A stretch of DNA of 64,000 nucleotides from Serpula lacrymans var. lacrymans S7.9 (Eukaryota > Basidiomycota > Agaricomycetes > Boletales > Serpulaceae): positions 1,380,031 to 1,444,030 of the forward strand of contig NW_006763299.1 in NCBI RefSeq assembly GCF_000218685.1. The letters run 5' to 3'. Under the pieces are notes generated by a model. That model had not been told where the DNA came from. It saw nothing but the letters and a program-made list of their open reading frames with translations, and searched no databases. The stretch's first letter is position 1; the number at the start of each line of letters is the position of its first letter. A program made the translations under genes and the position numbers. This document shows positions 6,235 to 30,492 of this stretch, one piece after another.

Positions 6235-6783
6235 CCCCTGTATTTTACCTTGTAAAAACAACAAGAACTCGAATCCAGACTTCTTCTCTACTCTCAAGTT
6301 CACTACTCTGCTACTTGTGATCCAGTGTGGTCACAACACTTCCCACTTCTACCACTGTTAACTGCTGTCATCGTCACTCGTCACTTTTTGAAAGTGATTG
6401 TCATCCCCTTCGATTAGAGTTCTTCTGAGCACTACAGTTTGTGCGTCAGGAGCCTGCTATCACTGGGAACCTCGTCACCTCGTCATCCTTGTTGTTCTCA
6501 AACCTACCTTGTGCTACGATTAGCAAGGTAGTGCTCGTCTATACTCGTCACCAAGCCCCTTATCCTTCTATAAATTCAACTATCCCTCCTCCTCAAAACC
6601 CACACTCATACACCTCTGGGTTTTACTTTGAAGGATCTTTATACGTACCACCCCACGAACAACCAGACCACTCCACTGTTCTAGGAGGCAAAGCCCATAA
6701 ACAAGTTCCGTGGAATCTGGGAGGATTGTGTGTTAGTTTGTTTTGTGTGTGGTTTTCTAACTGCAGTTCTCATCATCGACAAT

Positions 6784-6801
6784 TGGAGCCCACCGCGAGG
6801 G
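6784..6801 (+). promoter_or_regulatory. E1 primer-binding site
   Basis: TGGAGCCCACCGCGAGGG begins two bases after the LTR end. TGG complements the CCA tail of a tRNA, so tRNA 3'-end priming is expected. I could not name the tRNA. I see no match to the LTR that would suggest self-priming. Confidence 0.6.
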
Positions 6802-6976
6802 GTGGTTTCCTTCAAGCTAAATACCAACCATTTCATCGCCATCACTGTCTAATTTATCATCTACACCTTCTCTCTCACCCACCGCTTTATCTGTCCCATC
6901 CCTCTCTTCCAGTAACTCAATTTCTGTACCAGCTTCTACTCAGCAAGCTTCGCATTTACCCCCTATACTTTTCACT

Positions 6977-8506: not shown

Positions 8507-8507
8507 T
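8501..8507 (+). promoter_or_regulatory. Candidate +1 recoding site CTT TGA T
   Basis: The Gag frame ends CAT CTT TGA. The protease frame reads ...CAC ATC TTT GAT ATT and is +1. A tRNA on CUU slipping to UUU would skip one base and continue at GAT. The same CUU-UGA arrangement is the +1 site of bacterial release factor 2, and Ty1 uses CUU slippage. Use in this element is inferred. Confidence 0.45.
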
Positions 8508-8549
8508 ATTGCACAGCCTATCTTTGATCCCACTAATGACGATGTAATC

Positions 8550-10670: not shown

Positions 10671-13600
10671 CACTCCATTCAGCGCTCTTGGACCATATGC
10701 CACCTTTTCCCTTTTTCTTCTTTCTTGTTATATATCTATTACTTGTACAAAATGGCCTCTTGGATTTCTATGTTATCCGGTTTTTCCTTCCTTTACTCTT
10801 GTACCAACTTCTTTTTCTATTGTCTATGTTCCCCTTTCGTTCTTATCTGATCTTTTTCCTTCCCCCCTTGTAAAACTTCCGACCTCATCCCTATCCTATA
10901 CGGTCCGAGATGACGCAAAACTACCACGGCACTTTCCTTCTTTGAACACTTTTTGTTTTAACCCTAGTTACATGATAGACATTGTGGACCCTATACCTGT
11001 ACCAGCACCCGATTGGTCGAGTTTTGGAGCTTACAAACGTGTTGATCGCAAAGTCAAACCTGTTCCTGGAGTATTCCCAGAAGACGCACGTGTCACTCGG
11101 TCATTTCCAGAAGACCCACTCCTTTCGCTCCCACCCCTTCCTGTTCTTCCCCCAGAATTCATTCCCACGCCGAAGCTCACCAAGGAGCGCCTTTATGACG
11201 AAATGAAGCTAAACTCTGATGGATTCTTATGGCCAGAAGAGGAAAAGCTTTTCGCTCACATCATGATACTCAATCAGCGCAGTCTTGCCTTTGAGGAAAC
11301 TGACAGAGGAACGTTCAGAGAAGACTACTTCTCTCCCTACGTCATACCTGTTCTCCCACATGTCCCTTGGGAATATAAGAACATTCCTATTCCTCCTGGA
11401 ATCAAGAATGAAGTCATAGAATTGCTCAGAGACAAAATCAAAGCTGGAGTCTATGAGCCTAGCCAGTCGTCTTATCGCTCTAAGTGGTTTTGCGTTCAGA
11501 AGAAGAATGGCAAGATTCGCATCGTCCATGATCTTCAGCCACTAAATGCAGTCACTATCAAAGACTCAGGAGTACCACCTATCCTTGACGACTTTGTGGA
11601 GCCATTTGCTGGTTCTCAATGCTATACTGTATTTGATCTTTTTTGGGGATTTGATGCTCGAAAAGTGCATCCTGACAGTCGTGACCTTACCTCTTTTCTA
11701 TCGCCACTAGGACTTCTGAGGATTACTTCTATGCCTATGGGATTCACCAATTCCGTTCCAGAATTCCAGAATTGCATGACTTTCATCTTGCAAGACGAAA
11801 TTCCGCATATTGCCAATATCTTTGTTGATGACCTCCCAATCAAAGGACCTACTTCTCGTTATAAAGATGCAGATGGCAACCCAGAGACTATTCCTGGCAA
11901 CCCTGGCATTCGTAGATTTATATGGGAACATGCCATTGACGTTCATCGCATTATGCATAGAGTTGGTCATGCTGGCGGAACTTTCTCTGGAAAGAAGACT
12001 CAGTTATGTCGTCCTCAAGTTGTGATTGTCGGACAAGTATGCTGCCCAGAAGGTCGTCTCCCTGACAGTACCAAGGTGGACAAGATTCTTAAATGGCCAA
12101 TTCTCCAGACTCCCAAAGACGTTCGCAGTTTTCTTGGTCTATGTGGGACAGTTCGCATTTGGATCCGCAATTACTCTGCTCTTGCACGCCCCTTGACAGA
12201 ATTGTATCGCAAAGGAGCTGAATTTCAATGGGATGAACGCAGACAAGAAGCATTTGATGCTCTGAAGCATGCAGTATCTTCTGCACCAGCACTTCACCCT
12301 ATAAATTATTCGTCACACAACCCAGTCGTTCTTTCAGTTGATACCAGCAAGATTGCTGTTGGTTTTATCCTCTCCCAGCTTGATGAAAATGGAAGGAAGC
12401 GTCCAGCTCGCTATGGGTCTATTCCCATGAATGATAGAGAGGCAAATTACAGTCAACCCAAGCTAGAATTATATGGTTTGTTCAGAGCACTTCGTCATTT
12501 TCGCCTTTACATTGCAGGAGTAAAACACTTGCATGTGGAGGTGGATGCCAAGTATATCAAAGGCATGCTCAACGATCCAGATCTTCAGCCTAATGCCACT
12601 ATCAATCGTTGGATTCAGGGCATCCTTCTCTTTGATTTCAAGCTCATTCACATACCTGCTGATCGTCATCGTGGTCCTGATGCATTATCTCGTCGTCAAC
12701 CAACAGAGGAAGACTTTGAAGATGCTCAAGAATCAGATCAATGGCTTGATGATATCGCTCTTCTTGTTGATCTTGCCAGACCTCTCCCATATCACCCTAT
12801 GTCACTCCCTTCGTTCCTTACCAATGATTCTTCTCAGTATGATACTCTTCGTCGAATCTTCCACTTTCTTCAAACTATGGAGCTGCCTATATTTTCCTCT
12901 CTTCAAGCTCAAAAGTGTTTTGTCAAGCGATCACTTCAATTCTTCTTGAAAGGAGACAGCATGTTCAAGCGTCGTCACTCTGCTCCTCCTCTCAAAGTCA
13001 TCTTCAATCCTGACCTTCGACTTCACATCCTTACTGAAGCACATGAAAGGCTTGGTCACAGAGGAGTCAATGGTGTATTCTCTACAGTCAGAGAGCGCTT
13101 TTACTGGCCCCATATGTTACAGGATGTCAAGCATCATATTCGCACCTGCCATGAATGCCAGATTCGAAGTGTACGCAAAAGTGAAGTCCCACTTACCATC
13201 TCATCACCTCCTACAATCTTCACCAAAGTATATGTCGACATTATGCTCATGCCCAAGGCCAGAGGATATCGATATCTTGTTGCTGCAAGAGATGATCTGT
13301 CACTTGCTGCAGAAGGAAGAGCATTGAAGAAAGCATCTGCACATAATCTTGCTCGCTTTTTCTGGGAAGAAATCATCTGTCGCTATGGAGCTATAGGAGA
13401 AGTTGTCACAGATAATGGAAGCGAAGTCAAAGGAGCATTTGAAGAGCTTGTGGAACGTTACCAGATCCCTCATATTCGCATTTCTCCCTATAATCCCAAG
13501 GCAAATGGTGTTGTTGAGCGTGGACACTTCGTCATAAGAGAAGCACTTGTCAAGTCCTGTGAAGGGAATGTCGATTTATGGCCAACCAAGGTCCATCATG

Positions 13601-14196
13601 CCTTCTTTGCAGACAAGGTCACTACTCGTCGTTCTACTGGATTCAGCCCTTTTTATCTGTTGCACGGAGTTGACCCAGTCCTACCATTTGATCTGACAGA
13701 AGCAACTTTCCTTGTTCATGGATTCCATACTGCAATGTCAACAGAAGACCTCATTGCTCTGCGCATTCGTCAACTAGAAAAGAGACAGGATGATTTGCAA
13801 CAAGCTGCACTCACTATACGCAAAACTCGTCTCAGATCTAAAGCGCAGTTTGAGAAACTCTATGCACGAAGGATGTTCAAGAACGAATACCAGCCTGGAG
13901 AGCTTGTTCTAGTGCGGAATACTCAGGTTGAGAAAGAGCTGGATTGTAAAGCAAAGCCTCGTTACAATGGCCCTTATGAAGTTGTGCGACGTACTAAAGG
14001 AGGATCGTATGTTCTAAAAGAAATGGATGGATCAGTATCACGAAGAGGAATTGCAGCATTTCGCCTACTTCCCTATTTCAACCGCCACTCTATGCCACTC
14101 TTGGACGAACTGGATGACCATGATAACGACCTAGATGAACCAGAAGATGAACCTGACTATGAGCATAACGACTCAGATGATGAAGATAACGATTAA
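10633..14196 (+). CDS. E1 reverse transcriptase-RNase H-integrase
   Basis: ORF of 1187 codons. The first ~110 residues are hydrophobic and low-complexity and may not be part of the mature protein. The recognised order is: RT (about residues 250-500), with the active site written FVDD at 11821-11832; RNase H (about 570-690, DTSKIAVGF...DAKYIKGM); integrase HHCC zinc domain (H...H near 13021-13060, then CHEC at 13147-13158); and the DDE core with Asp in VDIM (about 13234), Asp in TDNGSE (about 13411) and Glu in VVERGH (about 13514). A GPY/F-like module (PRYNGPYEVV) and an acidic tail follow. No chromodomain is visible. The start at 10633 follows an in-frame TAG immediately upstream, so the ORF must be reached by recoding, splicing or internal initiation. 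Confidence 0.9.
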   Translation: MLVIHFYIPFLLNTPFSALGPYATFSLFLLSCYISITCTKWPLGFLCYPVFPSFTLVPTSFSIVYVPLSFLSDLFPSPLVKLPTSSLSYTVRDDAKLPRHFPSLNTFCFNPSYMIDIVDPIPVPAPDWSSFGAYKRVDRKVKPVPGVFPEDARVTRSFPEDPLLSLPPLPVLPPEFIPTPKLTKERLYDEMKLNSDGFLWPEEEKLFAHIMILNQRSLAFEETDRGTFREDYFSPYVIPVLPHVPWEYKNIPIPPGIKNEVIELLRDKIKAGVYEPSQSSYRSKWFCVQKKNGKIRIVHDLQPLNAVTIKDSGVPPILDDFVEPFAGSQCYTVFDLFWGFDARKVHPDSRDLTSFLSPLGLLRITSMPMGFTNSVPEFQNCMTFILQDEIPHIANIFVDDLPIKGPTSRYKDADGNPETIPGNPGIRRFIWEHAIDVHRIMHRVGHAGGTFSGKKTQLCRPQVVIVGQVCCPEGRLPDSTKVDKILKWPILQTPKDVRSFLGLCGTVRIWIRNYSALARPLTELYRKGAEFQWDERRQEAFDALKHAVSSAPALHPINYSSHNPVVLSVDTSKIAVGFILSQLDENGRKRPARYGSIPMNDREANYSQPKLELYGLFRALRHFRLYIAGVKHLHVEVDAKYIKGMLNDPDLQPNATINRWIQGILLFDFKLIHIPADRHRGPDALSRRQPTEEDFEDAQESDQWLDDIALLVDLARPLPYHPMSLPSFLTNDSSQYDTLRRIFHFLQTMELPIFSSLQAQKCFVKRSLQFFLKGDSMFKRRHSAPPLKVIFNPDLRLHILTEAHERLGHRGVNGVFSTVRERFYWPHMLQDVKHHIRTCHECQIRSVRKSEVPLTISSPPTIFTKVYVDIMLMPKARGYRYLVAARDDLSLAAEGRALKKASAHNLARFFWEEIICRYGAIGEVVTDNGSEVKGAFEELVERYQIPHIRISPYNPKANGVVERGHFVIREALVKSCEGNVDLWPTKVHHAFFADKVTTRRSTGFSPFYLLHGVDPVLPFDLTEATFLVHGFHTAMSTEDLIALRIRQLEKRQDDLQQAALTIRKTRLRSKAQFEKLYARRMFKNEYQPGELVLVRNTQVEKELDCKAKPRYNGPYEVVRRTKGGSYVLKEMDGSVSRRGIAAFRLLPYFNRHSMPLLDELDDHDNDLDEPEDEPDYEHNDSDDEDND

Positions 14197-14318
14197 TGAC
14201 TTACCTGAACGAATTTTATGCTGACATGACCCTTCAATGTGTTGCCATGTTTCATTCCCTATGACCCTACCTTTATGGAAGCAACTGGGGACAGTTGCAA
14301 TTTCAAGTTGTCCGTGGA

Positions 14319-16137
14319 TGTCATGCACCAAAGTTGATTGGTAGCATGGACAGCTGTCAATAACGAAGCGAATATTCAAAAAGACTCGCCTTTGCGCCAC
14401 ACAGGCACAGTGCCACGTGGAATAGTAATTAATATTGCCCTTTTTGAACTTGTGGCTGATCAGCACCACCTCTATTAGGCAATCCAGTCACGCTCACCTT
14501 TGCTTTTCCATCCGGTACTTTCCGCATTTCGGCATTTCGGCAAATTTTCGCGTCGCCACTGGCTACACATTGCATTGCGCCCTCGCTTTTGTCGTTTCCC
14601 TTACTCCCCTTCCTTTGCCTAGCCCCACCATGGGCCCCTTCCTCTCCTTTTTATTCTCACCCGACGGTCGTTTCTGGGTCCCCATTTTAGTTCACCTCCT
14701 CGTCACCTCCACCCTCCTCCTCCTCATCTTCTTTGCACCCCCACCATTTCTGATGTCACCACTTCCTATCCGCTTCCGTCGCCGATCCGTTGACTACCAC
14801 GTGCCACTGCTGATATCAGCAAAGCCCCGGCGGCCGGTCCAAATAGGGCAACAGGTCCATCTTCATGACGTCGATCTGCCATCATATACTATCAAAACAT
14901 CGGTCGCTCGTCTTGCCTGGTTGGAGCGTGGGTGGGTAATTTTTGAGCTGGAGAAGGTTCATCCCCTTGCGTCGCCCATGTTCATCGCTGTCCCATTCAC
15001 TTGGGTACACTTATCATTTGTCCATCGTCTTCGCTACAGCTACACCTACCACACACTGCCTGGGACTCACTTGTTCCAAATTGGAACTACTCCTCTCCCT
15101 CCCTCGTTTGATCAGGTGGTCCAACACAACCAGTCCATTGGTAAGGCCATGGAACTGTCAGATTTGGACTAGGTGGTGGACCGGTGGCTCCAGTTTCTTT
15201 TTTTTCAGCAGAACATTCATTTACAGTGCAATTATTTTTGATTTTTGAATCATTTTTATGGACACATATTTTTTTAGAATGCCTGACTGACAATAAAGGA
15301 ACTGTGTTGATACTGATAGTGTTTTGCTTTGCCTTTTTTTTACTGCATCTTCCCATGACATCATGATTTTCCTGCTCTCTTTTTGCTATTGGACTTTACT
15401 TTATGGCTGTACAAACCTGTGACATTACTCACAGCATTTATTGTTCTATCCCTTTCTTTTCTTTTTTTGACAATCTTATCCTGTACTACCTACGCAGGAT
15501 TTGTCAGCGTACATTCCTTCCTTCATATTCTTTCTCATTCTTTTTGCACAGCTATACTGTGCATAGCCTACTTCTCTTTTACTATATAAACCCCTGTATT
15601 TTACCTTGTAAAAACAACAAGAACTCGAATCCAGACTTCTTCTCTACTCTCAAGTTCACTACTCTGCTACTTGTGATCCAGTGTGGTCACAACACTTCCC
15701 ACTTCTACCACTGTTAACTGCTGTCATCGTCACTCGTCACTTTTTGAAAGTGATTGTCATCCCCTTCGATTAGAGTTCTTCTGAGCACTACAGTTTGTGC
15801 GTCAGGAGCCTGCTATCACTGGGAACCTCGTCACCTCGTCATCCTTGTTGTTCTCAAACCTACCTTGTGCTACGATTAGCAAGGTAGTGCTCGTCTATAC
15901 TCGTCACCAAGCCCCTTATCCTTCTATAAATTCAACTATCCCTCCTCCTCAAAACCCACACTCATACACCTCTGGGTTTTACTTTGAAGGATCTTTATAC
16001 GTACCACCCCACGAACAACCAGACCACTCCACTGTTCTAGGAGGCAAAGCCCATAAACAAGTTCCGTGGAATCTGGGAGGATTGTGTGTTAGTTTGTTTT
16101 GTGTGTGGTTTTCTAACTGCAGTTCTCATCATCGACA
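14319..16137 (+). repeat. E1 3' LTR (1819 bp)
   Basis: It is an exact-length duplicate of 4963-6781 at a constant offset of 9356 bp. The preceding bases (TCCGTGGA) are not purine-rich. A perfect GCAACTG/CAGTTGC hairpin with a GGGA loop lies 20-40 bp upstream (14281-14298). Confidence 0.95.
14630..15172 (+). CDS. LTR-internal ORF, 180-aa predicted membrane protein (3' LTR copy)
   Basis: Identical in layout to the copy at 5274. In the proviral RNA this copy would lie in the 3' U3 region, the position in which mouse mammary tumour virus encodes its superantigen ORF. The comparison concerns placement only; no sequence relationship is claimed. AATAAA follows at 15292-15297. Confidence 0.5.
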   Translation: MGPFLSFLFSPDGRFWVPILVHLLVTSTLLLLIFFAPPPFLMSPLPIRFRRRSVDYHVPLLISAKPRRPVQIGQQVHLHDVDLPSYTIKTSVARLAWLERGWVIFELEKVHPLASPMFIAVPFTWVHLSFVHRLRYSYTYHTLPGTHLFQIGTTPLPPSFDQVVQHNQSIGKAMELSDLD

Positions 16138-16235
16138 CCGCTCTTTACCTTTACCTTCTCAACAATACCATATTTACTAGTAGACAGCCTGTATTCCCCG
16201 CTCTTTATCTTTACCCTCTCAATAATATATTTGTT
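16138..16235 (+). repeat. Imperfect 60-bp tandem duplication next to the E1 3' LTR
   Basis: CCGCTCTTTACCTTTACC..CTCAACAATA at 16138 recurs as CCGCTCTTTATCTTTACC..CTCAATAATA at 16198. The first unit is cut by the LTR boundary. Its expected continuation (reverse strand GGAAGGCAGGC after AGAGCGG) is found at 30285, beyond the solo LTR, which supports the inversion model. Confidence 0.7.
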
Positions 16236-16905
16236 CCTACACATATCTATTCAAGTTCTAGCAACACATCATCATATTTTGCGCTCGGGTGCTTGCCCTC
16301 CTCTTCTTCCATTGCCATTTTGTCAGCCACTACCCCCTTATCTATTATATGCATCCCCTTGTCTATCAAATCAGCAACAACATGCTGGCTCTTGCGGTTG
16401 AGGGAAAATTCCTGGGCTGAGTGGGTCTTTATATGATCTGTAAGCAGCCCAAACATTTTTGTCATGTCCTTATCTGTGTGAGAGCTTGTGATGCCTGAGT
16501 GAAGGAAACTCTTGTCCGCAATGGCGTGAGTGTCACGGTAAATCTGTACAAGGGGGGACTCCAAGATGATTCACTCAACTGTTCTATTGGGACCATCACC
16601 TCCATTAATGACTTATGGGTGAGAGCTCATCAAGTGGGACAAGATGAATTGTAAGATTCAAACCTTGATGAACAAGTTGAATAATTCTACACACCAGTCA
16701 ACACCACAGAATTTACCTGGCTTTCCTGTAGGGATAACAACTGTATGGTACTGAACCGCTTGTCTGGGATAGCCTTAGCTTGCATCAATCAAAGAAAACT
16801 ACTGCACTTACTTTAAACCATCAGGGTATGAAAAATGAACAGCCACCAAAAATTGGTCATATACGTAGTGTATTTGTGCTTTCCCGTTGCCCTAAAAATG
16901 GGTAT

Positions 16906-17268
16906 TGTCACAATTGACGTACCAGTACCTACTTACACTTCACTTTTTCATACTTTTACTTTTATTTTTCCAAGTTATATGACCAGTCATGTGACACAAC
17001 ACCTGACCAGTGTCTAGACTCATCATGTGACCAGTCACATACTAAACATTGGACTTTAAACTTTATTTACAACTGTACAGTACCTTATGTATTTTAGTAT
17101 ATATACAGGAGCAATACATGGGGAAAGACTCAGCAAGTCCTCCTGTTGTCTACCAACAACTAACTTGTTGAAACCTAATGGGTAACCACTCCCGCCTCTT
17201 CCTCTTCTTTTGTGTTGTTTTCATTGTGCTCCAATGCCCCAAGACTGTGTCTTGTTGGTGTTGTCACA
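16906..17268 (+). mobile_element. Solo LTR (363 bp) inside the DUF6589 relic, TSD GGTAT
   Basis: Termini TGTCAC...GTCACA, with GGTAT directly repeated at 16901-16905 and 17269-17273. A TATA-like GTATATATAC lies about 160 bp before the end. The core CAGCAAGTCCTCCTGTTGT and the following ..GGGTAACCACTCCC are shared with the solo LTRs at 26440 and 56110, so all three belong to one broader family. Confidence 0.85.
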
Positions 17269-18503
17269 GGTATCTAATACACAATGCATGTTTCAACGTA
17301 CACAATGTCCCCTTTGTTCATTGCATACAACAGTTCATCATAGAGTAGCAAGTATTTATTGAGTAATAGCCCATTTTCATATTGTTGGTCTCGAAATGCT
17401 GGAGGATGCTGGTGTAGTCAAGTGAGCTTGTGATTGACAATACAAGCCTTGGCTAGATGGGCAGTTATAGCCCTGAGTTCTTCAAATGATGGTGCTGAAG
17501 CCACAAATAGGGCAAAAGTAGAATGAGCTGGATTATGAGTCTTCTCCTCAACTCTCCAGCAATCAAGATAGCGGCATATTCCAGTGTGATTGACCAGCTG
17601 ATGCATACACCTAAACCCTGGCTTGCTGCCATATATACCTGTCTCTCTAGGTTGCAACTTGGACACAAGCTCGTTTTATCTTGTCTTGCTGTTGCTGATT
17701 GCAGGAACGTGCGCCATAATGCGTCAGCACAAGCCATTTTAAGATGGAAGAGACCTGGTACAAGATTGAGGTGTTGAAAACGGTTCCAGAGTGTCTCCTC
17801 AATTGCCCTTTGCTCCTGAATAGCCTGCAGCCGCTCTCCTGTGCCCAGATCCCCATGTAATAGGACTACATGCTTGGATAAATCAACATAATCGAGGTTG
17901 GTATCTTCCGCCATATTTTTGATCACCCCCCCCTGTGCCATGAGATTCACATGGATGTTACCTGAAACAGTTGAGTTATTCACATCTATTGCTCAGGCAG
18001 CAACAACAGGTGTCTTGATGAGAGGAATTTATTCTATGACAGAAGGCTCTTCAAGCTGAGATTTAAAACCTGAAAAATACAATGGTCTGAAGTACAAGAG
18101 GTTGCTCTGGAACTTCCAAGCAATGAACTGTTGTTGTGGGCTAAGTCCAGCCATGTTTGGTGGTTGTGAATAGAGGGTTAGTAAATCTTTGAATGTTTTC
18201 TTGGGTGGAAGGTATTCAGTACAAAGCTGTGGGTTAAGGTGCGACTGTTTCCAAAGGGCATGTGAGCACTTGAGGTTGACCTGAGAAACCCCATGTTGCA
18301 GTGGAAATAACAGGCCAGATGTGAGGTGCTTCAGACTGTCTGTAGAAAGTTCAATAGTGGAAGCACTGGTTTTGAGATTGTCATCAAAGTTGTCATATGC
18401 ATACAATGCAAAAAGGGTTTGGCCAAGATCTTGAAGGGCTCAATGAGACTCCATTGATAGCAATTGAATAGCAGCTTAAATTGCATTCATTGATATTGAT
18501 ATG

Positions 18504-18845
18504 TGTCACAATCGTATCCATCTGACTCATCCTTTTTATCTAATCGCGAGATAGAGACTATTATCTCACCTAATCTAATCTCTCTTTGATCTTATCTTAT
18601 CTAGTAATCACGTGACACATTAGTAATACTCATTACCAATCAGCCTCACGCATTACACATGTTACTTACCAATACGCTACGTCATACCTCACCGTAGCCT
18701 CATACTTTCTTCTATATAACTAGCACGATATCCATGTACATACCCCAGTTGTAGATTTACTCTTATACTTGCTTGTCCAACACTTGTTGTGTGATTTAAG
18801 TCCTACGCTGCTCGGGTTACCGGCATAACAGCTAGGGTCTTTACA
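18504..18845 (+). repeat. E2 5' LTR
   Basis: TGTCAC start and TTTACA end, 342 bp. TATATAA lies at 18713-18719, and the predicted RNA start is about 34 bp later, at 18747. Confidence 0.95.
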
Positions 18846-18857
18846 TAATCTACAACT
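18747..18857 (+). promoter_or_regulatory. E2 predicted RNA 5' end and complementary primer-binding site
   Basis: The 11 bases AGTTGTAGATT at 18747-18757, placed where the transcript should begin relative to the TATA box, are the exact reverse complement of AATCTACAACT at 18847-18857. The latter starts one base after the LTR end, where a primer-binding site belongs. Tf1 and related chromoviruses prime with the first 11 bases of their own RNA. The TSS position is inferred from the TATA distance. Confidence 0.75.
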
Positions 18858-18874
18858 TTGAACGACACCTGTTG

Positions 18875-19135
18875 ATGAGCAAAAGCACAGCTATTCTAAT
18901 CATCACCCTATTCCCTCTCATCGCAATCATACTCTTTGGCATTGCCAAACTCTACATCTATATTACCAAACCAACTACCACCACACCTATCACCCGACCA
19001 TCAACCATTGTCTCATTTTTCCCTGCCAACGTCTCACCCACAGAGTCGTTTGTCGATATCCCTCTCACTCCCCCTTCCAACCCTGTAGCTAGAACCCTTG
19101 ACGGCGTGGAGCCCGATAGGTATTACTTAGTTTAG
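18875..19135 (+). CDS. E2 leader ORF, 86-aa predicted single-pass membrane protein
   Basis: The ATG at 18875 is 18 bp past the primer-binding site and is the first AUG of the predicted RNA after the LTR. Residues about 5-28 (TAILIITLFPLIAIILFGIAK) form a strong transmembrane segment. A Thr/Pro-rich stretch and a tail ending EPDRYYLV follow. No family is recognised. It ends about 400 bp before gag. It would be translated before gag on a scanning model, so it could either be a real product or act as an upstream ORF. No sequence similarity to the E1 small ORF beyond topology is evident. Confidence 0.45.
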   Translation: MSKSTAILIITLFPLIAIILFGIAKLYIYITKPTTTTPITRPSTIVSFFPANVSPTESFVDIPLTPPSNPVARTLDGVEPDRYYLV

Positions 19136-19542
19136 AAAAACTTCTTTACCCTTCTGACCAGGCCGCTCACTTGAGTCCGCCAGTTGGAAAAGACCTGCAC
19201 ACGGTTATTCGCTGTGTATCACTGAGACAACCGTCTGGACCTCAGTTACTATACTTTAGAACACCAATACATAGTTAGAATTAGTTACGTACACAGTCAG
19301 TGCGGGACAGAAGAGGAACTGCTTGACTAAAGAAGGAAACAGATAGACCCGGTTGATCTTACATTAGAAAGTGTTGATCCGACTTATCATCGGGAAACTC
19401 TTTTGTATGCAACCTGGGAAATTCGAAGAGTGGTTAGCAGAAGAACACTTTCACTCCGAGAACAGATTAGCTTGGGAAATTTACTTTACATTCCCAGAAA
19501 TAGAACCGATCAGAACCCGCTACCACACCCCCTACCCAGATC

Positions 19543-20733
19543 ATGACAACAGAAGCATTCGGAGAGTGGCGAGGTCCGCGCGAAGAGCCGGACACATCAG
19601 AGATAGGAATGGGAGAATTGTCAGGTGCACTCCCACCGTTGGAACCACGAGCGCCAACATCGCAGGAAGCTGGACTGGAACAGTACATTCAGACCAGAAT
19701 AGAACAGGAGCAGAGACGGCTCCACGATCTTTACGAAACGCAGCTGAAAGAGGCGAAAGAAGAAGTCGAAGAATTGCTAGCCAAGCTGAGGTTAGCTACG
19801 TCAAATTCTTCTACGTCCGCTCCCGCCGCATCCGCACCCACGCCACCCAGTACGCAGCCGAGACGCGTAGATAGAACGAGAACAGCACTCCAGAAGCCTG
19901 AGAACTTCAATGGAGACAGAAAGAAGTATAAGGCTTTCCGCGAGGCCTTAATGCTAAACTTCAAGGATGATGAGGAATATTTCGCGGATGAAAGAAGAAA
20001 GATCGCCTATGTGCTTTCTTTCATGACAGGAGGAGCAGCGGCTACCTTCAGAACGGAGTGGATGGAGACGAAACTAGAAAAGAGGATGCGAGGAGAAAAC
20101 CTCAAATCCACTTACGAAAGTTTTGAGTGGTTCGCCCACAAGATGGAGACTCGGTTCAAGAATGTTCACGAGCAACTCGCCGCCCGCAATGACATAATGA
20201 TCTTGCGCCAAGGAAAGAACACGGCAGAGAAGCACTTCGAACATTTCGAAGAACTGAGAAGAGAGGCTAACTACCTCCAAGCAGCCAATGAGGACTTCCT
20301 CATTTCGCTCTTACGTAGGAACATGAATGAACCCCTGGTCAATCAGGTGATATACGGCGGCCGGGAGCCAGCCAACTACGAAGAGTGGAAAAAGGAGTTG
20401 ATCCGCATTGACTACTTGTGGCGCCACAGAGAGGCGGAGAAGGAGAGCTTCAGAAGCACGGAGAAAAAGAAGCAAGACAGAGGAGGAAAGACCAAGCCAA
20501 AGGTCGAGAGAAAGAAGGACGGTAGCGGGTACCTTTATACCCAAGCCGGTGACCCAATGAAGGTCAACAAAGCGGAGTACCGACAGAAAGGGCTCTGCTA
20601 CCGGTGCGGAGAAAAAGGACACCGATCCTTCGAATGTAAAAAAGAAGCGCACGCAAAACCCCAATTCAACGTTAGGGAGTTCTTGCAAAAGATGAGTGCG
20701 GAAGAAAGAGCAAAGATCCTTCAGGGTTTTTGA
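19543..20733 (+). CDS. E2 Gag
   Basis: 396 codons from ATG 19543. There is a coiled-coil-like Glu/Arg-rich N-terminal part (residues 45-85), a capsid domain (about 110-300; KPENFNGDRKKYKAFREAL...), a Lys-rich linker and one CCHC knuckle (CYRCGEKGHRSFEC, about residues 355-368). The frame ends CAG GGT TTT TGA. Pol continues in -1 through GGGTTTT at 20724-20730. Gag is intact. Confidence 0.93.
   Translation: MTTEAFGEWRGPREEPDTSEIGMGELSGALPPLEPRAPTSQEAGLEQYIQTRIEQEQRRLHDLYETQLKEAKEEVEELLAKLRLATSNSSTSAPAASAPTPPSTQPRRVDRTRTALQKPENFNGDRKKYKAFREALMLNFKDDEEYFADERRKIAYVLSFMTGGAAATFRTEWMETKLEKRMRGENLKSTYESFEWFAHKMETRFKNVHEQLAARNDIMILRQGKNTAEKHFEHFEELRREANYLQAANEDFLISLLRRNMNEPLVNQVIYGGREPANYEEWKKELIRIDYLWRHREAEKESFRSTEKKKQDRGGKTKPKVERKKDGSGYLYTQAGDPMKVNKAEYRQKGLCYRCGEKGHRSFECKKEAHAKPQFNVREFLQKMSAEERAKILQGF
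20724..20733 (+). promoter_or_regulatory. -1 ribosomal frameshift heptamer G GGT TTT before the gag stop
   Basis: The heptamer fits X XXY YYZ exactly in the Gag frame, and the TGA stop follows directly at 20731. The Pol frame (TTT TTG AAG AGG CCA) is open across it. A downstream pseudoknot was not verified. Confidence 0.7.
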
Positions 20734-23700
20734 AGAGGCCAGCGGTAACACATCAACCGACTGTGCCTAAGGACAAAAGTTTCATAAATAGTTTCTCTTC
20801 TTTGTTGATCGAAGATTCCTGCTCACCGTCTACTGTATATGATACCGATCATGAAAATGAAATTGCATTAGCCAAAGACGCAGCAGATCTAAGATTGAAA
20901 GAAAAAGAAACTAAAAAAGATGTGAACCTGAATAGGGAACGGGTTAGAAAGATCCCAAACAAAGAGATTACGGCGCACTCAGAAGAGAAAAGCGCAGTAA
21001 CTAAAAAAGAATTTGTGAAGGAAGTGACTCAATCGGGCAGCACTTCATTGGAAACAACAGAACCACAGAAAGCAGTGACTCAATTGGGAAGCACTGATGT
21101 AACTGATGGTTCGACCAGTTCCAAAGAGGTCAGGAACACCTCTAATAAAAACCTAGACCACAAAGAGAGAAAGAGACTGACAGCGGCATGGACGCCACTA
21201 TGGGTTGCTGAAAGATTACGAGACCAAAAGGAAGACAGATCCATTGGTATTCTCAACATCTGGACGCACCAAAAGAGAAGCAGAGAAGTCACAATAGAGA
21301 CGATACAAGAGTTAAATGCATTAACGCTACACGATGCTGAACTCGCTCTATTAGAGTTACACACCCCAAAGAAATACATTAGGGGAACGCAAGGAAATCA
21401 GATGAAGATTACTTGCAAACTCACAACTCTTGACACAAACCGATCAACGACGATCGAAGCTCTCTTAGATAGTGGATGCACAGGGAGCTGTATAGACTCA
21501 GTGTTCGTAAAAGAACAAGGTTACGAGACAAAGAAGATACCGAGACCAATTCCAGTATATAACGCTGATGGCACACTTAACAAAGATGGTGCTATCAAAG
21601 AATTTATAGAATTACGGATGAGCATAGAAGACCACGAAGAGAACATTCACTTTGCTGTAACAAGCTTAGGGAGTGGACGCATGTTCCTTGGACATGAGTG
21701 GTTAACAAAGCACAATCCTACTATAGATTGGAAGAAGTCGGAGTTGAACTTTGATAGATGCCCGAAAGAATGCAAACGACAGGTTGACTTCCTTGATCCG
21801 GAAGAAGACCCTGACACATACTTTTCGGAAGTAGATCGCTCAGATGGGGATCAGCTGATCCAAGTGAATCTAATGAACTACGAAGATACTTCTATTGATG
21901 ATCACTACTACCATATTAGGGCACAAGGCACAACAGCTCAGAAGCTTGCCGAGGCCGCTGGTAAAGATCAGAAAGAAGGAGGATTCGAGAAGATAGTTCC
22001 AAAACACCTTCACGATTACAAAGACGTATTCGATAAAGAATCATTTGATGCACTGCCAGAGAGACGCCAATGGGATCACGCTATAGAACTCATCCCAGGG
22101 GACCATACTCTGGACTGCAAATGTTATCCACTGGCTTTAGGTGAACAAGAACAATTAGATGCATTCATAAACGAAAATCTCGAATCAGGAAGAATTAGAC
22201 CTTCCAAATCTCAATTTGCATCCCCGTTCTTCTTCATCAAAAAGAAAGATGGAAAACTCAGACCCGTCCAAGACTATCGGAGATTAAACGATATAACCAT
22301 CAAAAATAGATATCCGCTACCCTTGATAAATGAACTTGTAGACAAGCTCAGGGGCGCGAAATACTTTACAAAGTTAGATATCAGATGGGGATACAACAAC
22401 ATCTGAATCAAAGACGGAGACGAACACAAAGCAGCCTTCAGAACAAATAGGGGGCTCTTTGAACCATTAGTGATGTTCTTTGGACTCACAAACTCGCCAG
22501 CGACATTTCAAACCATGATGAATGCGCTATTCAAAGATTTGATTGATGACGGAAAAGTCGTAATATACCTCGACGACATCATGATTTTCACAAAAACAAT
22601 TGAAGAACACCGCGCAATGACACGCAGAGTGTTAGATATCTTAAGGAAGAACAACCTTTACCTAAAACCAGAAAAATGCGATTTCGAAGAGACCTCAACA
22701 GAGTACTTAGGTCTTATCATTTCAGAAAATAAAATCCGCATGGACCCGGTAAAAGTAAAAGGAATCATGGAATGGCCAGAATGCAAATCAAAGAAAGAAG
22801 TACAAGCATTCTTGGGTTTCGTGAACTTCTATAGAAGATTCATAGAAGGCTTTGGGTTGATCGCCAAGCCATTAATGAAATTGACCGGGAAAGTAGAGTT
22901 TGTGTGGGGACAGGAACAGATTGACGCTTTTAACGGATTAAAAACCCGTGTCGGATCAACTCCCGTACTCGCCTTACCAACTGATGACGGCCAATTTAAG
23001 ATAGAAGCAGATAGCAGCGATTATGCTATGGGGGCAGTTCTTTCACAAATGCAAGACGGGAAATGGAAACCGATTGCATATCTCTCAAAAGTGTTAAACC
23101 CTACAGAACGCAATTATGAGATCTACGATAAAGAACTTCTCGCTATAATGACTGCGTTAGAAGAATGGAGGCATTATCTCGTTGATGCTAAAGAGGTGTT
23201 TGAGATCTGGACAGACCACCAGAATCTTCTCTACTACAAACAACCTCAAAAGCTCAACAGACGACAAGCTAGATGGGTCATGGAATTGAGCAATTACCAC
23301 TTTACGCTCCATCATATTCCAGGTACCAAACACATCAAAGCAGACCTTCTCTCGAGACGAGCAGATCATGAAAGGGGGGCGGATGACAACAAAGACGTAA
23401 TCGTTCTAAAAGCAGAACACTTCAGAATGATGATTTCACACACAGAAAGACAACGCATGGCAGAGCAATCAGCCGATGCAGTGGAATTATACAAATGGAT
23501 CTGTAAAAGAATGATGAACGTAGACGAAGTAGCGCGGAAGATGATAGAGAAAGGGGAAGACAGAGAAAAAGGCATATGGATGGAAGACGAGATGTTGATA
23601 TTCAAAGGAAGGATCTATATTCCCAAAGACGGGAAATTACGAGAACACATCATAAAAGAAAACCATGACTCCACTGTAGCAGGACACCCCGGACAGTATA

Positions 23701-25142
23701 AAACCAAGGAATTGGTAACTAGATGGTATTGGTGGCCGTACATGGACAGAGACATCCGAAAGTACGTAGAAGGCTGTGAAACGTGTCAACGCACAAAAAT
23801 TAATTATCAAAAGAAAGTGGCACCGTTACACCCGAATGAAATCCCAACCAGACCATGGGAAATCATTACCAGAGACCTGATCGGACCATTACCGGAATCT
23901 CTCGGTTACAATATGATACTCGTGGTAGTAGATCGATTCTCGAAGATGATCAAAGTCATGCCGACTTATGATAAAGTGACGTCAGAAGGAGTAGCCAGAT
24001 TATTTAGAGACAACGTCTTTAGAAATCACGGCATACCGGAAAAGATCATTTCAGATAGAGGACCGCAATACGTCTCTAACTTCATGAAAGATCTCTATAA
24101 GCTCCTCGGGATAAAAGGAAATCCCTCGACCGCTTATCATCCTCAGACAGACGGACAGACAGAACGGATAAACCAAGAGATAGAACAGTATCTCAGAATA
24201 TTTGTCAATCACAAACAAACAGACTGGGCCGAATGGTTACCACTAGCGGAATTTTCTTATAACAATAAGTCACACTCTGCAACTGGCTACAGCCCTTTCT
24301 TTTTAAATTCAGGACAACATCCGAAAGTCACAAAAGGAATTAGAAGTACGGTAAAGACAGAGAGTGCGGAGGAGTTTGTGAAGAGGATGGAGGAAACAAG
24401 GAAAGAGGCAGAAAAATCGCTGGTAAAAGCAGCAGAAAATATGAAAAAACAATATGACAAAGGAAAGAGAGAGGCAATCGCATACAAAGAAGGAGACAAA
24501 GTATATGTTGAAGCAGAACATATAACCACCGATAGACCCGCAAAGAAACTTGACGATAAAAGACACGGACCTTTCCCCATCGAAAAGAAAATAGGCAAAG
24601 GAGCCTATAAATTAAAACTTCCTGGACGATGGAAAAACATTCACCCGGTCTTTAACGAAAAGTTACTCACACCCTTCAAAGAACCAGAGTTCGAAACTCA
24701 AAAGAAACCAAAAACCGCACCACCGGTGATAGTGGAAGGAATCAAAGAATATGAAGTAGAAGAGGTTCTAGACTCATGATTGAAACGTGGGAAACTAGAA
24801 TATTTGGTACATTGGAAAGACTTTCCAAAAGAGGATCGCACGTGGGAACCCGAATCCAACCTAACACACTCACCAAAACTCGTAAAACAGTTTCATGATA
24901 AAAACCCCAGTGCACCCCGAAGGATAGAATTTACTCTAAATTACCAACCATTCGAAAACCTCACCATCCCAACTCGTATTCGAAAATCCTTATATAACTG
25001 GGAAACCGGAAAGCTAGACTCTCACTTTCGGGACAAAAGTCCTAAGGAGGGGGTAATGTCACGATCGTATCCATCTGACTCATCCTTTTTATCTAATCGC
25101 GAGATAGAGACTATTATCTCACCTAATCTAATCTCTCTTTGA
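20730..25142 (+). pseudogene. E2 Pol (PR-RT-RH-IN-chromodomain) with two nonsense codons
   Basis: One frame throughout, broken by TGA at 22404-22406 (YNNI*IKDGDEHKAAF, where Arg is usual) and TGA at 24777-24779 (EEVLDS*LKRGKLEY, where Arg is usual). Both look like CGA to TGA changes. Domains: a ~200-residue variable leader; aspartic protease LLDSGCTGS (21462-21488); RT with YLDD (22566-22577); RNase H (EADSSDYAMG); integrase zinc domain (H...H...CETCQ, 23650-23790); DDE core with Asp near 23876, Asp in SDRGPQ near 24052 and Glu in TERINQ near 24161; GPF module (RHGPFPIEKK); and a chromodomain YEVEEVLDS...YLVHWKDFPKEDRTWEPESNL (24750-24870). The frame runs 85 bp into the 3' LTR. There is no ATG near its start, as expected for a -1 fusion to Gag. 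Confidence 0.92.
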
Positions 25143-25398
25143 TCTTATCTTATCTAGTAATCACGTGACACATTAGTAATACTCATTACCAATCAGCCTC
25201 ACGCATTACACATGTTACTTACCAATACGCTACGTCATACCTCACCGTAGCCTCATGCTTTCTTCTATATAACTAGCACGATATCCATGTACATACCCCA
25301 GTTGTAGATTTACTCTTATACTTGCTTGTCCAACACTTGTTGTGTGATTTAAGTCCTACGCTGCTCGGGTTACCGGCATAACAGCTAGGGTCTTTACA
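25057..25398 (+). repeat. E2 3' LTR
   Basis: 342 bp, preceded by the polypurine tract AAGGAGGGGGTAA and followed by TSD ATATG. Confidence 0.95.
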
Positions 25399-26439
25399 AT
25401 ATGCCCATATGCGCAAGAGTATCTATGACTCTCTTGAGGGCGTGCGAGAACTGAAGAAAGATGCCAAGGATATTTTGCAAACTGTTCACTTTCTGATTGG
25501 TGCTGTGCATTAAAACACTAATAATGACAACTTTTTTCTATGAATTGCATGTGTACAGTCAGATAAGTCTTGCAGTGGCAATTTGGTAGCTACTTACAAC
25601 TGTCAGGATCAGTCTATGGCATTTTTTAGCTTTTTGAGCGCATACTATAGGGTCGCTTATGGTTATTTGTACCATGCCTTCTAAGTCCACACCATCAACT
25701 TGCTCCCAGTACTCCTCCTCCTCCTCTGCATCTACTCCAGCCATGGTAATATCACTATCTCCAATCCAACTTGACAATCTGTGTGGCAAAAGCGAGGAGC
25801 TGAGTAATAACAAGTCCCCAACTTGCTTCCATAGTAGTGGTGCAAGTTTCTCAAACCTGGAACTCATGTCTTGAACATAGAAGTCTTTGATCTGATTGGC
25901 TGTTGCTTTGGCTGCGTTGAAATGCCAGCCACTCTCTTTCATTGAGAAGGAGCAGATTTTAGCAGCACAGTTTGAAGTAGTGACTTGAAGGGCCCAATAT
26001 TGGGCCTTGAGACTGGTTTTTGATGGTCTGCAAATGTCGAGTAGAGTGTCCATCTGTACCAGCTAATCACTCTGATTGCAATAAACGATCAATGATCATT
26101 ATTGAGGCTTAATCTTACTTGTAGTTAGTTACCCAATTTGGAATACTGTGCACTAAAAATAATGAATTTGCGTGCAACTAATATTCTAAGGGTACAGTGT
26201 CACTGGTATGGGGATGTCACTGTGGCAATAGATTGTTTACTGGTGTTATATGCCAGCCTCTATGGAGAGAGAGCAAGGGACATTCAAATTTTCTGGTCAT
26301 GTGATGTATTCTATTTTTTTTAATTTTCATATATCATCTCACATCAAACCTCTAGGATAAATCCCTCCTCTCTCAAAATAGAGGCTGGGTAGGAGCCTGA
26401 GTCCAAGAAGGACTACCTGTTGAGAAGACAGGCTCAAAC

Positions 26440-26846
26440 TGTTACAACCAAAGTTTTTGATACTCTGGCGCACAACTCAGACAAAGCTATAAAGGTAGTG
26501 GTTACCCTTTGGATAGGACCGAGTTAGTTATGGGTAAACAACAGGAGGACTCGCTGAGGAGTCTCCTTGATCTATTAGGGTATATATACTACTACAGGGT
26601 TGTTTGTACATGTGTACTGTACAGTTGATAGAGGCAGTGGCTGATGATGTCATGGGGTACAGCCCGTGTGACCAGCTCCACTGTGTGAGAGAGTTGTATC
26701 TAAAAATAAGGAAAAGACAGCGTAGCACGAGAAAAAAGAGTTTGAACAAACAGAAAAGTGCTGCATGGCACAGTGTGTGAAAACTACAGAAAAAGGTTAA
26801 AGAGGAGAATGAAAATTAAAGGTCCAAAAATTGTGTTATTGTAACA
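26440..26846 (-). mobile_element. Solo LTR (407 bp), TSD CAAAC
   Basis: On the minus strand it starts TGTTACAATAACAC and ends GGTTGTAACA. CAAAC flanks both sides (26435-26439, 26847-26851). It is clearly the same family as 56110-56795, with shared blocks such as CACACAGTGGAGCTGGTCA and GAGACTCCTCAGCGAGTCCT. Confidence 0.88.
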
Positions 26847-26952
26847 CAAACCCAGTTTGAAAAGTCCCAAAAAAAAGGGGCTACTGAAACTAAGCACCCC
26901 AAAAGGGATGTTAAAGAAATGAACAACGTAGAACGTGCCATAGCACATCTAT

Positions 26953-28428
26953 GTGCTGAAAAAAGAAACAGGCACACTCTTAATGAGATGTGCAAAAAGG
27001 ATCTCCAAGAATTTGGAGAACCTAATATCCCCCGACCCCTCACAGGATGTGACAAAGAACTCCAAGAAGAGTTCAAATGGGCAGGATAAACCTGGCAAAG
27101 AATGGGCCCCTAACTTGCCCAAAGAACAAAAAAGAAGGCAAGGACATGCCAACAGGCAGGCCCCTCCTGAACCCAACCCTGTCATGGGAGGATAAACACA
27201 AACACGTTGTGCACTCCGGCACCAACTCATGTGCCAGTGAGCCTCATAGTGCCAGGCAATGCCTGGATCAACCCAGAGGTCAAAGAGGCCTTCGCAATCC
27301 CAGGGGTGACATATAGTACTGACATCAAAAATGAATCCCTCAGTGGAGAGGGAAAATGTTGTGTGGTCTGCAACTGCACTGAAACTCATGAGGTGTACTA
27401 CTTGTCCACCAGTATGTATGTCTTCCCCATTCCTGGGAGGAGACACACTTGGTCCTACAAACAAGTAAACACTGCCATGGCCAGCCTCCACACAGGGGTT
27501 CCCCCGCCTCTTAGCACTGCTCCTTTTGGGGGGGGGGCAATAATGCATCACTTCCACATAGGATGTGGATGATTTATGTGCACGAGTGCATGGGGACAAT
27601 ATGTCCAAGGCAGACAAATGGTTTACCAAAACATTTGTTTGGGCGGCACAACAAACTGCCCAGGAAGTGACTGAGGTCCAATGTTGTGTGCGTGAGGCAT
27701 GGGTCCGTATATAAGGAGAGGATCACCCTCTCTGTGCAAAGAAGGCAAGCAGCTCATTCCCCCAGCTCACCAATCCTGCCGAAAAGCACAAGGCTTGGAT
27801 TGAGCACCATGAGCGCCCCTACAAAGGGGTCACACTATATGGGATCCACAATACATGTGATCTGGAAGAAGTGGAGGGCTACCTCCTTCTAGCTAGGCTA
27901 TGTCCCACAGCCAACAACAAGCAAGGGGAGGCTAACTACCTCCACTTCACAAAAACAGCCATCAAATTGTTGGCTTCTGGGACAGACTCCATCTCTGCAT
28001 TGAGAATGGAGCTCAACATTGTGCCCAAAAGGATGTATGAGAGATATCAAGGGCCTCTGGAGACCCTTACAGAGGAAAATGTTGTCCGTCACTTTGCAGC
28101 CAATGGAGTGACTACAGAAGAGGCCATTCAGGCAAGGCAATTTGCCCGCACCTGGATTTAAACTGAAACTGCGACATGTTTGCCCAAAGGTGCCCTACAA
28201 TGGGGTGTTGTCTTCTCTCAATGTCCTTCAGAGGACATCAAAATCCTATATGGTGCACCCAGTCCAGCCCATATGGATGTAGACACCACCCCTCAGGTGG
28301 CTGAATCATCAGAAAGTGTACATATGTGCTACATGCGAGTTGATGCCCCAGAGCACAACTATGATGATGACGCCATGGGGCTTCAGATCCTCCTGTATGG
28401 GAGCCTCAATAAGAGCATCTACAATTGA
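26953..28428 (+). pseudogene. Unidentified coding relic, several frames
   Basis: Coherent protein-like stretches succeed each other on the plus strand in shifting frames: 26953-27195 (Lys/Pro-rich), 27207-27572 (IVPGNAWINPEVKEAFAIPG ... HTWSYKQVNTAMASLH), 27770-28161 (HHERPYKGVTLYGI ... LLLARLCPTANNKQGEANYL ... ELNIVPKRMYERY) and 28180-28428. Stops and frame changes separate them. I do not recognise the family. It could be a repeat-associated ORF or a host gene that decayed. Its last frame continues openly for about 27 codons if 28461 is rejoined to 4958, as the inversion model predicts. Confidence 0.45.
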
Positions 28429-28461
28429 TGCTGTGCCTTCATAGGATGCCAAGTGCGCCGT

Positions 28462-30280
28462 TGTCGATGATGAGAACTGCAGTTAGAAAACCACACACAA
28501 AACAAACTAACACACAATCCTCCCAGATTCCACGGAACTTGTTTATGGGCTTTGCCTCCTAGAACAGTGGAGTGGTCTGGTTGTTCGTGGGGTGGTACGT
28601 ATAAAGATCCTTCAAAGTAAAACCCAGAGGTGTATGAGTGTGGGTTTTGAGGAGGAGGGATAGTTGAATTTATAGAAGGATAAGGGGCTTGGTGACGAGT
28701 ATAGACGAGCACTACCTTGCTAATCGTAGCACAAGGTAGGTTTGAGAACAACAAGGATGACGAGGTGACGAGGTTCCCAGTGATAGCAGGCTCCTGACGC
28801 ACAAACTGTAGTGCTCAGAAGAACTCTAATCGAAGGGGATGACAATCACTTTCAAAAAGTGACGAGTGACGATGACAGCAGTTAACAGTGGTAGAAGTGG
28901 GAAGTGTTGTGACCACACTGGATCACAAGTAGCAGAGTAGTGAACTTGAGAGTAGAGAAGAAGTCTGGATTCGAGTTCTTGTTGTTTTTACAAGGTAAAA
29001 TACAGGGGTTTATATAGTAAAAGAGAAGTAGGCTATGCACAGTATAGCTGTGCAAAAAGAATGAGAAAGAATATGAAGGAAGGAATGTACGCTGACAAAT
29101 CCTGCGTAGGTAGTACAGGATAAGATTGTCAAAAAAAGAAAAGAAAGGGATAGAACAATAAATGCTGTGAGTAATGTCACAGGTTTGTACAGCCATAAAG
29201 TAAAGTCCAATAGCAAAAAGAGAGCAGGAAAATCATGATGTCATGGGAAGATGCAGTAAAAAAAAGGCAAAGCAAAACACTATCAGTATCAACACAGTTC
29301 CTTTATTGTCAGTCAGGCATTCTAAAAAAATATGTGTCCATAAAAATGATTCAAAAATCAAAAATAATTGCACTGTAAATGAATGTTCTGCTGAAAAAAA
29401 AGAAACTGGAGCCACCGGTCCACCACCTAGTCCAAATCTGACAGTTCCATGGCCTTACCAATGGACTGGTTGTGTTGGACCACCTGATCAAACGAGGGAG
29501 GGAGAGGAGTAGTTCCAATTTGGAACAAGTGAGTCCCAGGCAGCGTGTGGTAGGTGTAGCTGTAGCGAAGACGATGGACAAATGATAAGTGTACCCAAGT
29601 GAATGGGACAGCGATGAACATGGGCGACGCAAGGGGATGAACCTTCTCCAGCTCAAAAATTACCCACCCACGCTCCAACCAGGCAAGACGAGCGACCGAT
29701 GTTTTGATAGTATATGATGGCAGATCGACGTCATGAAGATGGACCTGTTGCCCTATTTGGACCGGCCGCCGGGGCTTTGCTGATATCAGCAGTGGCACGT
29801 GGTAGTCAACGGATCGGCGACGGAAGCGGATAGGAAGTGGTGACATCAGAAATGGTGGGGGTGCAAAGAAGATGAGGAGGAGGAGGGTGGAGGTGACGAG
29901 GAGGTGAACTAAAATGGGGACCCAGAAACGACCGTCGGGTGAGAATAAAAAGGAGAGGAAGGGGCCCATGGTGGGGCTAGGCAAAGGAAGGGGAGTAAGG
30001 GAAACGACAAAAGCGAGGGCGCAATGCAATGTGTAGCCAGTGGCGACGCGAAAATTTGCCGAAATGCCGAAATGCGGAAAGTACCGGATGGAAAAGCAAA
30101 GGTGAGCGTGACTGGATTGCCTAATAGAGGTGGTGCTGATCAGCCACAAGTTCAAAAAGGGCAATATTAATTACTATTCCACGTGGCACTGTGCCTGTGT
30201 GGCGCAAAGGCGAGTCTTTTTGAATATTCGCTTCGTTATTGACAGCTGTCCATGCTACCAATCAACTTTGGTGCATGACA
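28462..30280 (-). mobile_element. Solo LTR of the E1 family, opposite orientation (1819 bp)
   Basis: Full-length reverse complement of the E1 LTR, from TGTCGATGATG to GGTGCATGACA. At the substitution noticed between the two E1 LTRs it has the 5' LTR base. It has no matching target duplication of its own: the left flank is CCGT and the right flank GCGG. Confidence 0.95.
29427..29969 (-). CDS. LTR-internal ORF, 180-aa predicted membrane protein (solo LTR copy)
   Basis: Third intact copy of the LTR ORF, here with no retroviral genes attached. If it has its own promoter in U3 it could be expressed from this solo LTR; no upstream TATA box is obvious. Confidence 0.45.
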   Translation of the reverse strand: MGPFLSFLFSPDGRFWVPILVHLLVTSTLLLLIFFAPPPFLMSPLPIRFRRRSVDYHVPLLISAKPRRPVQIGQQVHLHDVDLPSYTIKTSVARLAWLERGWVIFELEKVHPLASPMFIAVPFTWVHLSFVHRLRYSYTYHTLPGTHLFQIGTTPLPPSFDQVVQHNQSIGKAMELSDLD

Positions 30281-30492
30281 GCGGGGAAGGCAGGCAAGCT
30301 ATCCTTGATGGGTAGCTGTTTGCTATAGATACAATGAGCAACCAGCACAGTTTATCAGTGAATACCACTTACATTTTCCTTGTTAGCCCATGATTGACAT
30401 GTGGCTTGATACATACCACAGCTACGGCTGCGCACTGAATAGAACCAAGTCAAAAAAGAAGAGGGCGTAAAATAAATTGATGTACTAGTGTG

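What the first reader, a model, noticed from the sequence alone, without database searches (positions are those of the whole stretch)
16138..28461. 12.3-kb inversion between oppositely oriented LTRs, shown by swapped target duplications
E1 is flanked by ACGG (4959-4962) and CCGC (16138-16141), which do not match. The inverted solo LTR of the same family is flanked, in LTR orientation, by CCGC (30281-30284 reversed) and ACGG (28458-28461 reversed). Flipping 16138-28461 restores a 4-bp duplication to both insertions at once (ACGG for E1, GCGG/GCGG for the solo LTR). Two further signs agree. The tandem repeat broken at 16138 finds its expected continuation (GGAAGGCAGGC) at 30285. The last reading frame of the 28.4-kb relic stays open for about 27 codons when joined to 4958. 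The DUF6589 relic, the chromovirus and two solo LTRs lie inside the flipped segment. Because the LTRs are 1.8 kb and nearly identical, an assembly misjoin would give the same picture.
Basis: partly seen in the sequence, partly recalled or inferred. Interest (0 to 1): 0.9.

Follow-up and report, generated by a model that had tools for sequence, protein, structure and literature searches.

The report
Flipped DNA between retrotransposon repeats
In a genome that is almost surely the dry-rot fungus, a stretch of about 12 kb (or 22 kb, the data cannot tell which) seems to have been turned round by recombination between near-identical copies of a jumping gene, a known kind of event that still needs checking against the sister strain to rule out an assembly error.

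Summary
The window is almost surely Serpula lacrymans S7.9. Inversion by LTR-LTR recombination is the best reading, with three corrections. (1) The family inserts at CpG: 25 of 25 exact duplications, among 37 insertions, read NCGN. A crosswise match of this pair by chance is therefore 0.2-0.8%, not 1 in 65,000. (2) The flipped interval is ambiguous: a crossover in E1's 5' LTR (flipping 6782-28461 with E1's interior) leaves the same swap. (3) The 27-codon reading-frame argument is no evidence. The tandem-repeat continuation holds: at three of seven tested lengths no other CG site of the window matches as well. No copy of either restored junction was found elsewhere in the assembly, and misassembly is not excluded. 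All five pairs of insertions with 5 or fewer LTR differences lie within 60 kb of each other. A known kind of event; the CpG target choice is the less expected result.

The parts
4959..4962 (+). ACGG, left half of the site A target duplication
   Evidence: read directly
4963..6781 (+). E1 5' LTR, 1,819 bp, identical to the solo LTR; alternative crossover site
6782..14318 (+). E1 interior; stop-to-stop frames 6821-8506, 8475-10670 (aspartyl protease, weak) and 10633-14196 (RT, RNase H, integrase)
14319..16137 (+).
16138..16141 (+). CCGC, half of the site B target duplication (GCGG on the other strand); also the first bases of a 60-nt tandem unit whose second copy starts at 16198
16138..28461 (.). 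segment flipped if the crossover was in E1's 3' LTR (12.3 kb)
   Evidence: inference
6782..28461 (.). segment flipped if the crossover was in E1's 5' LTR (21.7 kb); leaves the same swapped ends
   Evidence: inference
28458..28461 (-). CCGT on the + strand = ACGG, other half of the site A duplication
28462..30280 (-). solo LTR of the E1 family, 0 differences from E1's 5' LTR
30281..30284 (+). GCGG, other half of the site B duplication
30285..30295 (+). GGAAGGCAGGC, continuation of the tandem unit broken at 16138

Best explanation
Two insertions of one CpG-targeting Gypsy-type LTR retrotransposon landed close together in opposite orientation, one at ACGG (site A), one at GCGG (site B). One became a solo LTR by recombination between its own LTRs. 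[quoted passage not shown] SHOWN: opposed near-identical LTRs, swapped duplications, a tandem unit whose continuation lies at the other junction. INFERRED: the crossover, its place in time, and that it is not an assembly error. NOT DECIDABLE here: whether E1's 3' LTR (12.3 kb flipped) or its 5' LTR (21.7 kb flipped with E1's interior, the solo LTR then having stood at site A) took part, and whether the solo LTR formed before or after.
For: Crosswise exact duplications, chance for this pair 0.0025-0.008. Tandem unit continues over the restored junction B. LTRs of E1 and solo differ at 0-1 of 1,819 positions while the nearest of the 37 other LTRs is 23 away. Insertions with unlike ends are 9 of 37, so recombination between copies may be frequent in this family. 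Unlike, inverted duplications are what PMC8225341 (passages) describes for NAHR between inverted transposons, and PMC9731477 (passages) describes a fungal 24-kb segment flipped between homogenised inverted repeats.
Against: No intact copy of either restored junction was found in the assembly. No reads and no second strain were available. Over all 36 pairs of insertions with unlike ends an exact crosswise match is not rare (0.083 or 0.26), and three other pairs miss by one base. The frame sign fails. The present solo join is open for 78 codons, longer than restored A.
Confidence: 0.7

Rival explanations
1. Assembly misjoin: the real chromosome has the un-flipped order and the assembler crossed from one near-identical LTR to the other.
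For: LTRs are 1,819 bp and differ by 0-1 bases. The assembly has gaps: 100 N at 3364-3463, 1.5 kb from E1, and an 894-N run in L018 next to another LTR piece, which may also be withheld sequence. Assembly method unknown to me.
Against: No N run in 3464-64000, and the two LTRs of E1 are kept apart by one base. Only two distinct N runs in about 269 kb of fetched, partly overlapping loci.
Confidence: 0.2
2. Coincidence: E1 and the solo LTR each lost their matching duplication by separate recombination with other copies, and the leftovers match by chance.
For: 9 of 37 insertions have unlike ends, and CpG targeting leaves few 4-mers; some exact pair among 36 is expected in 8% (shuffle) or 26% (draw) of trials.
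Against: The matching pair is the one that is also opposed, 12 kb apart and identical in LTR sequence, and the tandem unit continues at the predicted place.
Confidence: 0.05
3. Integration itself made the inversion: two sister cDNAs had their ends shared between two integration complexes, so each bridged sites A and B; one copy later became a solo LTR.
For: Would give crosswise 4-bp duplications and identical LTRs in one step (pattern).
Against: Needs two coordinated events where NAHR needs nothing special. My inversion searches (listings only) showed no such case for an LTR retrotransposon, and PMC8225341 restricts its related mechanism to cut-and-paste elements (passages).
Confidence: 0.03

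Closest known systems
Flip/flop inversion on chromosome XIV of Saccharomyces (PMC9731477; passages seen)
   Same: Segment of similar size between near-identical inverted repeats, explained by NAHR; the paper ties flipping to gene conversion that homogenises the repeats.
   Different: There the repeats are 4.2-kb host gene copies and both orientations are seen in many strains; here LTRs, one genome, no target duplications involved there.
Inversions by ectopic recombination between inverted transposons, as contrasted with alternative transposition in maize (PMC8225341; passages seen)
   Same: Elements at both breakpoints with unlike duplications because the inner ones were carried along by the inversion.
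   Different: The six maize inversions themselves come from alternative transposition and have matching new 8-bp duplications at the breakpoints.
Ty3/Gypsy LTR retrotransposons
   Same: TG...CA LTRs and protease (weak), RT, RNase H, integrase in order; 1,448 relatives at E 0.001 or better among 7,992 candidates scored.
   Different: No chromodomain among the Pfam hits; all 25 exact 4-bp duplications have a CG core.
Ginger1 DNA transposons (PMC2836005; passages seen)
   Same: Gypsy-like integrase and 4-bp duplications with a CG core (CCGG 75%, CCGT/ACGG 24%).
   Different: Ginger1 are DNA transposons with terminal inverted repeats; E1 has LTRs and reverse transcriptase, and its duplications comprise 12 different NCGN words among 25.

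Membership tests
Inversion by NAHR between inverted repeats | homologous repeats in opposite orientation at both breakpoints | tested here: met
   1,819-bp LTRs, 0-1 differences, opposed
Inversion by NAHR between inverted repeats | two different target duplications exchanged crosswise between the elements | tested here: met
   the criterion is from PMC8225341 (passages)
Inversion by NAHR between inverted repeats | sequence broken at the breakpoints continues when the segment is flipped back | tested here: inconclusive
   tandem unit continues at site B; nothing found for site A and no intact copy elsewhere in the assembly
Inversion by NAHR between inverted repeats | a relative with the un-inverted order | not testable with these tools
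   no second Serpula assembly could be searched; one search states that the genome has no relatives here
Alternative transposition (reversed ends, Ac/Ds type) | a newly made duplication shared by the two breakpoints at transposon ends of a cut-and-paste element | tested here: not met
   breakpoint ends are CCGC and CCGT (ACGG reversed), each matching the outer end of the other copy; E1 encodes reverse transcriptase
Ty3/Gypsy LTR retrotransposon (E1) | LTRs ending TG...CA and RT, RNase H, integrase in that order | tested here: met
   RVT_1 is below its curated cutoff (27.1 vs 29.6 bits), RNase H and integrase models are above theirs
Chromovirus (E1) | chromodomain at the integrase C-terminus | tested here: not met
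   no chromodomain hit at E 0.001 in 10633-14196
Ginger1 DNA transposon (E1) | terminal inverted repeats, no reverse transcriptase | tested here: not met
   direct LTRs and RT/RNase H

The most novel reading that the evidence does not exclude
The inversion was made by the integrase itself: two sister cDNAs shared their ends between two integration complexes at two CpG sites about 12 kb apart, so a copy-and-paste retroelement did what the papers seen here describe only for cut-and-paste transposons. This explains identical LTRs and crosswise 4-bp duplications in one step.
Probability: 0.03. Interest if true: 0.8.

Novelty: new member of a known kind. Interest (0 to 1): 0.42.

Why it matters
If real, it is a young LTR-mediated inversion readable to the base at both ends, in a species with two published monokaryon genomes, so it can be checked directly. 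The controls uncovered a family whose exact target duplications all hold CpG and whose most similar copies are physical neighbours. Two questions become testable: whether a Gypsy-type integrase reads CpG (perhaps methylated), and whether neighbouring LTRs arise by local insertion or are homogenised by gene conversion. It also warns that short target duplications must be judged against the element's own target preference.

Tried and rejected
Reading-frame continuity at site A: rejected, a present join is open for longer. Copies crossing a junction: the two joined-flank queries and the 1.56-kb flank 26900-28461 found the window itself plus short repeats that do not reach the junction; the DNA search skips very common words. 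Paralogues on C5 (DUF6589) and C8 (copia) were fetched towards the junctions; each runs into another LTR 91-92% like E1's before getting there, and I did not read beyond those LTRs. A sensitive comparison of six fetched loci with both candidate joins gave no alignment across either. Protein search with the relic beside 28461: none of 2,993 candidates at E 0.01 or better. Using LTR base 737 to place the crossover: rejected, it is private to one LTR. The 1-in-65,000 figure (4-mers taken as random): rejected because of the CG core.

Limits of the family set: one search scored 40 of 991 first-look candidates, so 37 insertions are a lower bound biased to copies like E1; three partial rows of its 43 were dropped. 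'Solo' means that E1's first or last 400 interior bases were not found in the fetched flanks, mostly 1.5 kb. In the neighbour test each full element is represented by its 5' LTR, and the neighbour pairs are not independent (three of eight come from one trio). Literature on CpG-targeting LTR retrotransposons: no title or abstract start in the listings showed one, but only the top 12-20 of 27-873 papers were listed per search.

Full report
WHAT IS THERE. E1 runs from 4963 to 16137 with 1,819-bp LTRs; an opposed LTR of the same family without interior lies at 28462-30280. E1 is flanked by ACGG and CCGC, the solo LTR, read in its own direction, by CCGC and ACGG. E1's 5' LTR and the solo LTR are identical; the 3' LTR has one private base.

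WHERE IT IS FROM. Three glutathione-transferase-like genes of the window match proteins named from Serpula lacrymans S7.3 (98-100% over the main exon, 100% over the first 27 residues), and the longest contigs listed with such proteins, 1,977,525 and 1,859,922 bases, equal contigs C10 (the window's) and C11 of its assembly; a protein named from strain S7.9 lies on the latter. The window is almost surely S. lacrymans S7.9 (taxid 578457). S7.3 and S7.9 are both genome-sequenced monokaryons (PMC3564976; passages and section 10 read).

HOW STRONG IS THE SWAP. From the whole assembly I took 40 complete LTRs: 3 full elements and 34 solo LTRs, 37 insertions. 25 have exact 4-bp duplications, 3 differ by one base, 9 by two or more, E1 and the solo LTR among them. 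All 25 exact duplications have CG in the middle; of 74 ends 69 do, and the other five (TTGG, ATGT, GTGT, CCAG, CCAG) are what loss of a CpG by C-to-T change would leave. CG makes up 3% of dinucleotides in the window. A control family (window 26440-26846 and seven copies) has 5-bp duplications in the 6 of 8 copies where I could read one, none with a CG core; two of the six share their flanks and may be one event. So the family chooses CpG, and the chance of a crosswise match for this pair is 0.0025 (shuffle), 0.004 (collision frequency) or 0.008 (draw), not 1 in 65,000. Over all 36 pairs of the nine insertions with unlike ends it is 0.083 or 0.26; one pair is exact and three miss by one base. 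The 4-mers alone are suggestive, not conclusive.

INDEPENDENT SUPPORT. A 60-nt tandem unit starts exactly at 16138, its second copy at 16198. What stands before the second copy is not found before E1 but does stand beyond the solo LTR at 30285: 8 of 10 nt, against 4 of 10 for the present left flank of E1. Of 3,880 CG sites of the window, those scoring as well, the unit itself and this flank included, number 2 at k=10, 15 and 20, 3 at k=12, 4 at k=25, 23 at k=8 and 22 at k=40.

WHICH LTR. A crossover in E1's 3' LTR flips 16138-28461. A crossover in its 5' LTR flips 6782-28461, E1's interior included, and leaves the same swapped 4-mers; the solo LTR then stood at ACGG and the full element at GCGG. 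The LTRs, which differ only by one private base, do not tell the two apart. The finding names only the first.

AGE AND NEIGHBOURS. One difference between E1's LTRs, at the rate used in PMC5689174 (1.05e-9 per site and year; passage seen), is about 0.26 million years by my arithmetic. The nearest LTR outside the trio is 23 differences away. All five pairs of insertions with 5 or fewer differences lie within 60 kb on one contig; the eight neighbour pairs average 14.9 differences against a median of 44 for all pairs, reached by 0 of 20,000 permutations, though the pairs are not independent. Six of eight neighbour pairs are opposed (P 0.29, not significant). Neighbours are thus siblings from local insertion, or are homogenised; two pairs 3.0 and 4.4 kb apart with 23 and 22 differences speak against strong homogenisation. 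In yeast, homogenised inverted repeats 24 kb apart flip their segment by occasional crossover (PMC9731477, passages).

WHAT COULD NOT BE SHOWN. No copy of either restored junction was found elsewhere in the assembly, so the ancestral order is inferred. No reads were available. I keep one chance in five for misassembly.

VERDICT. Most likely a real, young inversion by LTR-LTR recombination, a known kind of event whose signature is described in print (PMC8225341, passages). The less expected result is the CpG choice of the family; the nearest parallel that I saw is the Ginger1 DNA transposons (PMC2836005, passages).

Noticed in passing
E1 family: window 4963-16137 and 28462-30280, and loci L004-L040: All 25 exact target duplications are NCGN, and the 5 of 74 ends without CG are possible CpG-decay products; an LTR retrotransposon with a strict CpG core in its target site.
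   Followed up: partly
L009/L010, L013 (C10), L014/L022 (C7), E1/solo (C10): The most similar LTRs of different insertions are physical neighbours: all five pairs with 5 or fewer differences lie within 60 kb.
   Followed up: partly
L009 (C10:1156383-1158204) with C10:1155999-1156382: An E1-family LTR abuts positions 1-385 of another, opposed LTR and has unlike ends (CCGC/ACGA), probably another recombinant of a nested insertion.
   Followed up: no
window 3175-3316, 3364-3463, 3465-3619: The 100-N gap lies between inverted copies of a short repeat that also occurs as an inverted pair at C6:2782742-2783628, probably a small transposon with inverted ends.
   Followed up: no
window 51203-53633 and 61115-63545, with 50741-51148 and 63593-64000: Large inverted repeat: 2,431 nt 100% complementary and 408 nt 98% complementary, about 7.5 kb apart, carrying host-like reading frames.
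   Followed up: no
window 232-918, 34179-34865, about 35601-36347, 59472-60158: Cluster of glutathione-transferase-like genes, three close copies and one more distant.
   Followed up: no
L060 (C5:2142800-2143900) and L059 (C8:1173980-1175400): The C5 paralogue of the DUF6589 relic and the C8 paralogue of the copia relic are each cut by an LTR 91-92% like E1's.
   Followed up: partly
PMC3564976 section 10: The paper reports an 18-kb insertion holding a gypsy element at MAT A of S7.9 but not S7.3, and MAT B alleles inverted between the two strains; whether the E1 family is involved was not tested.
   Followed up: no
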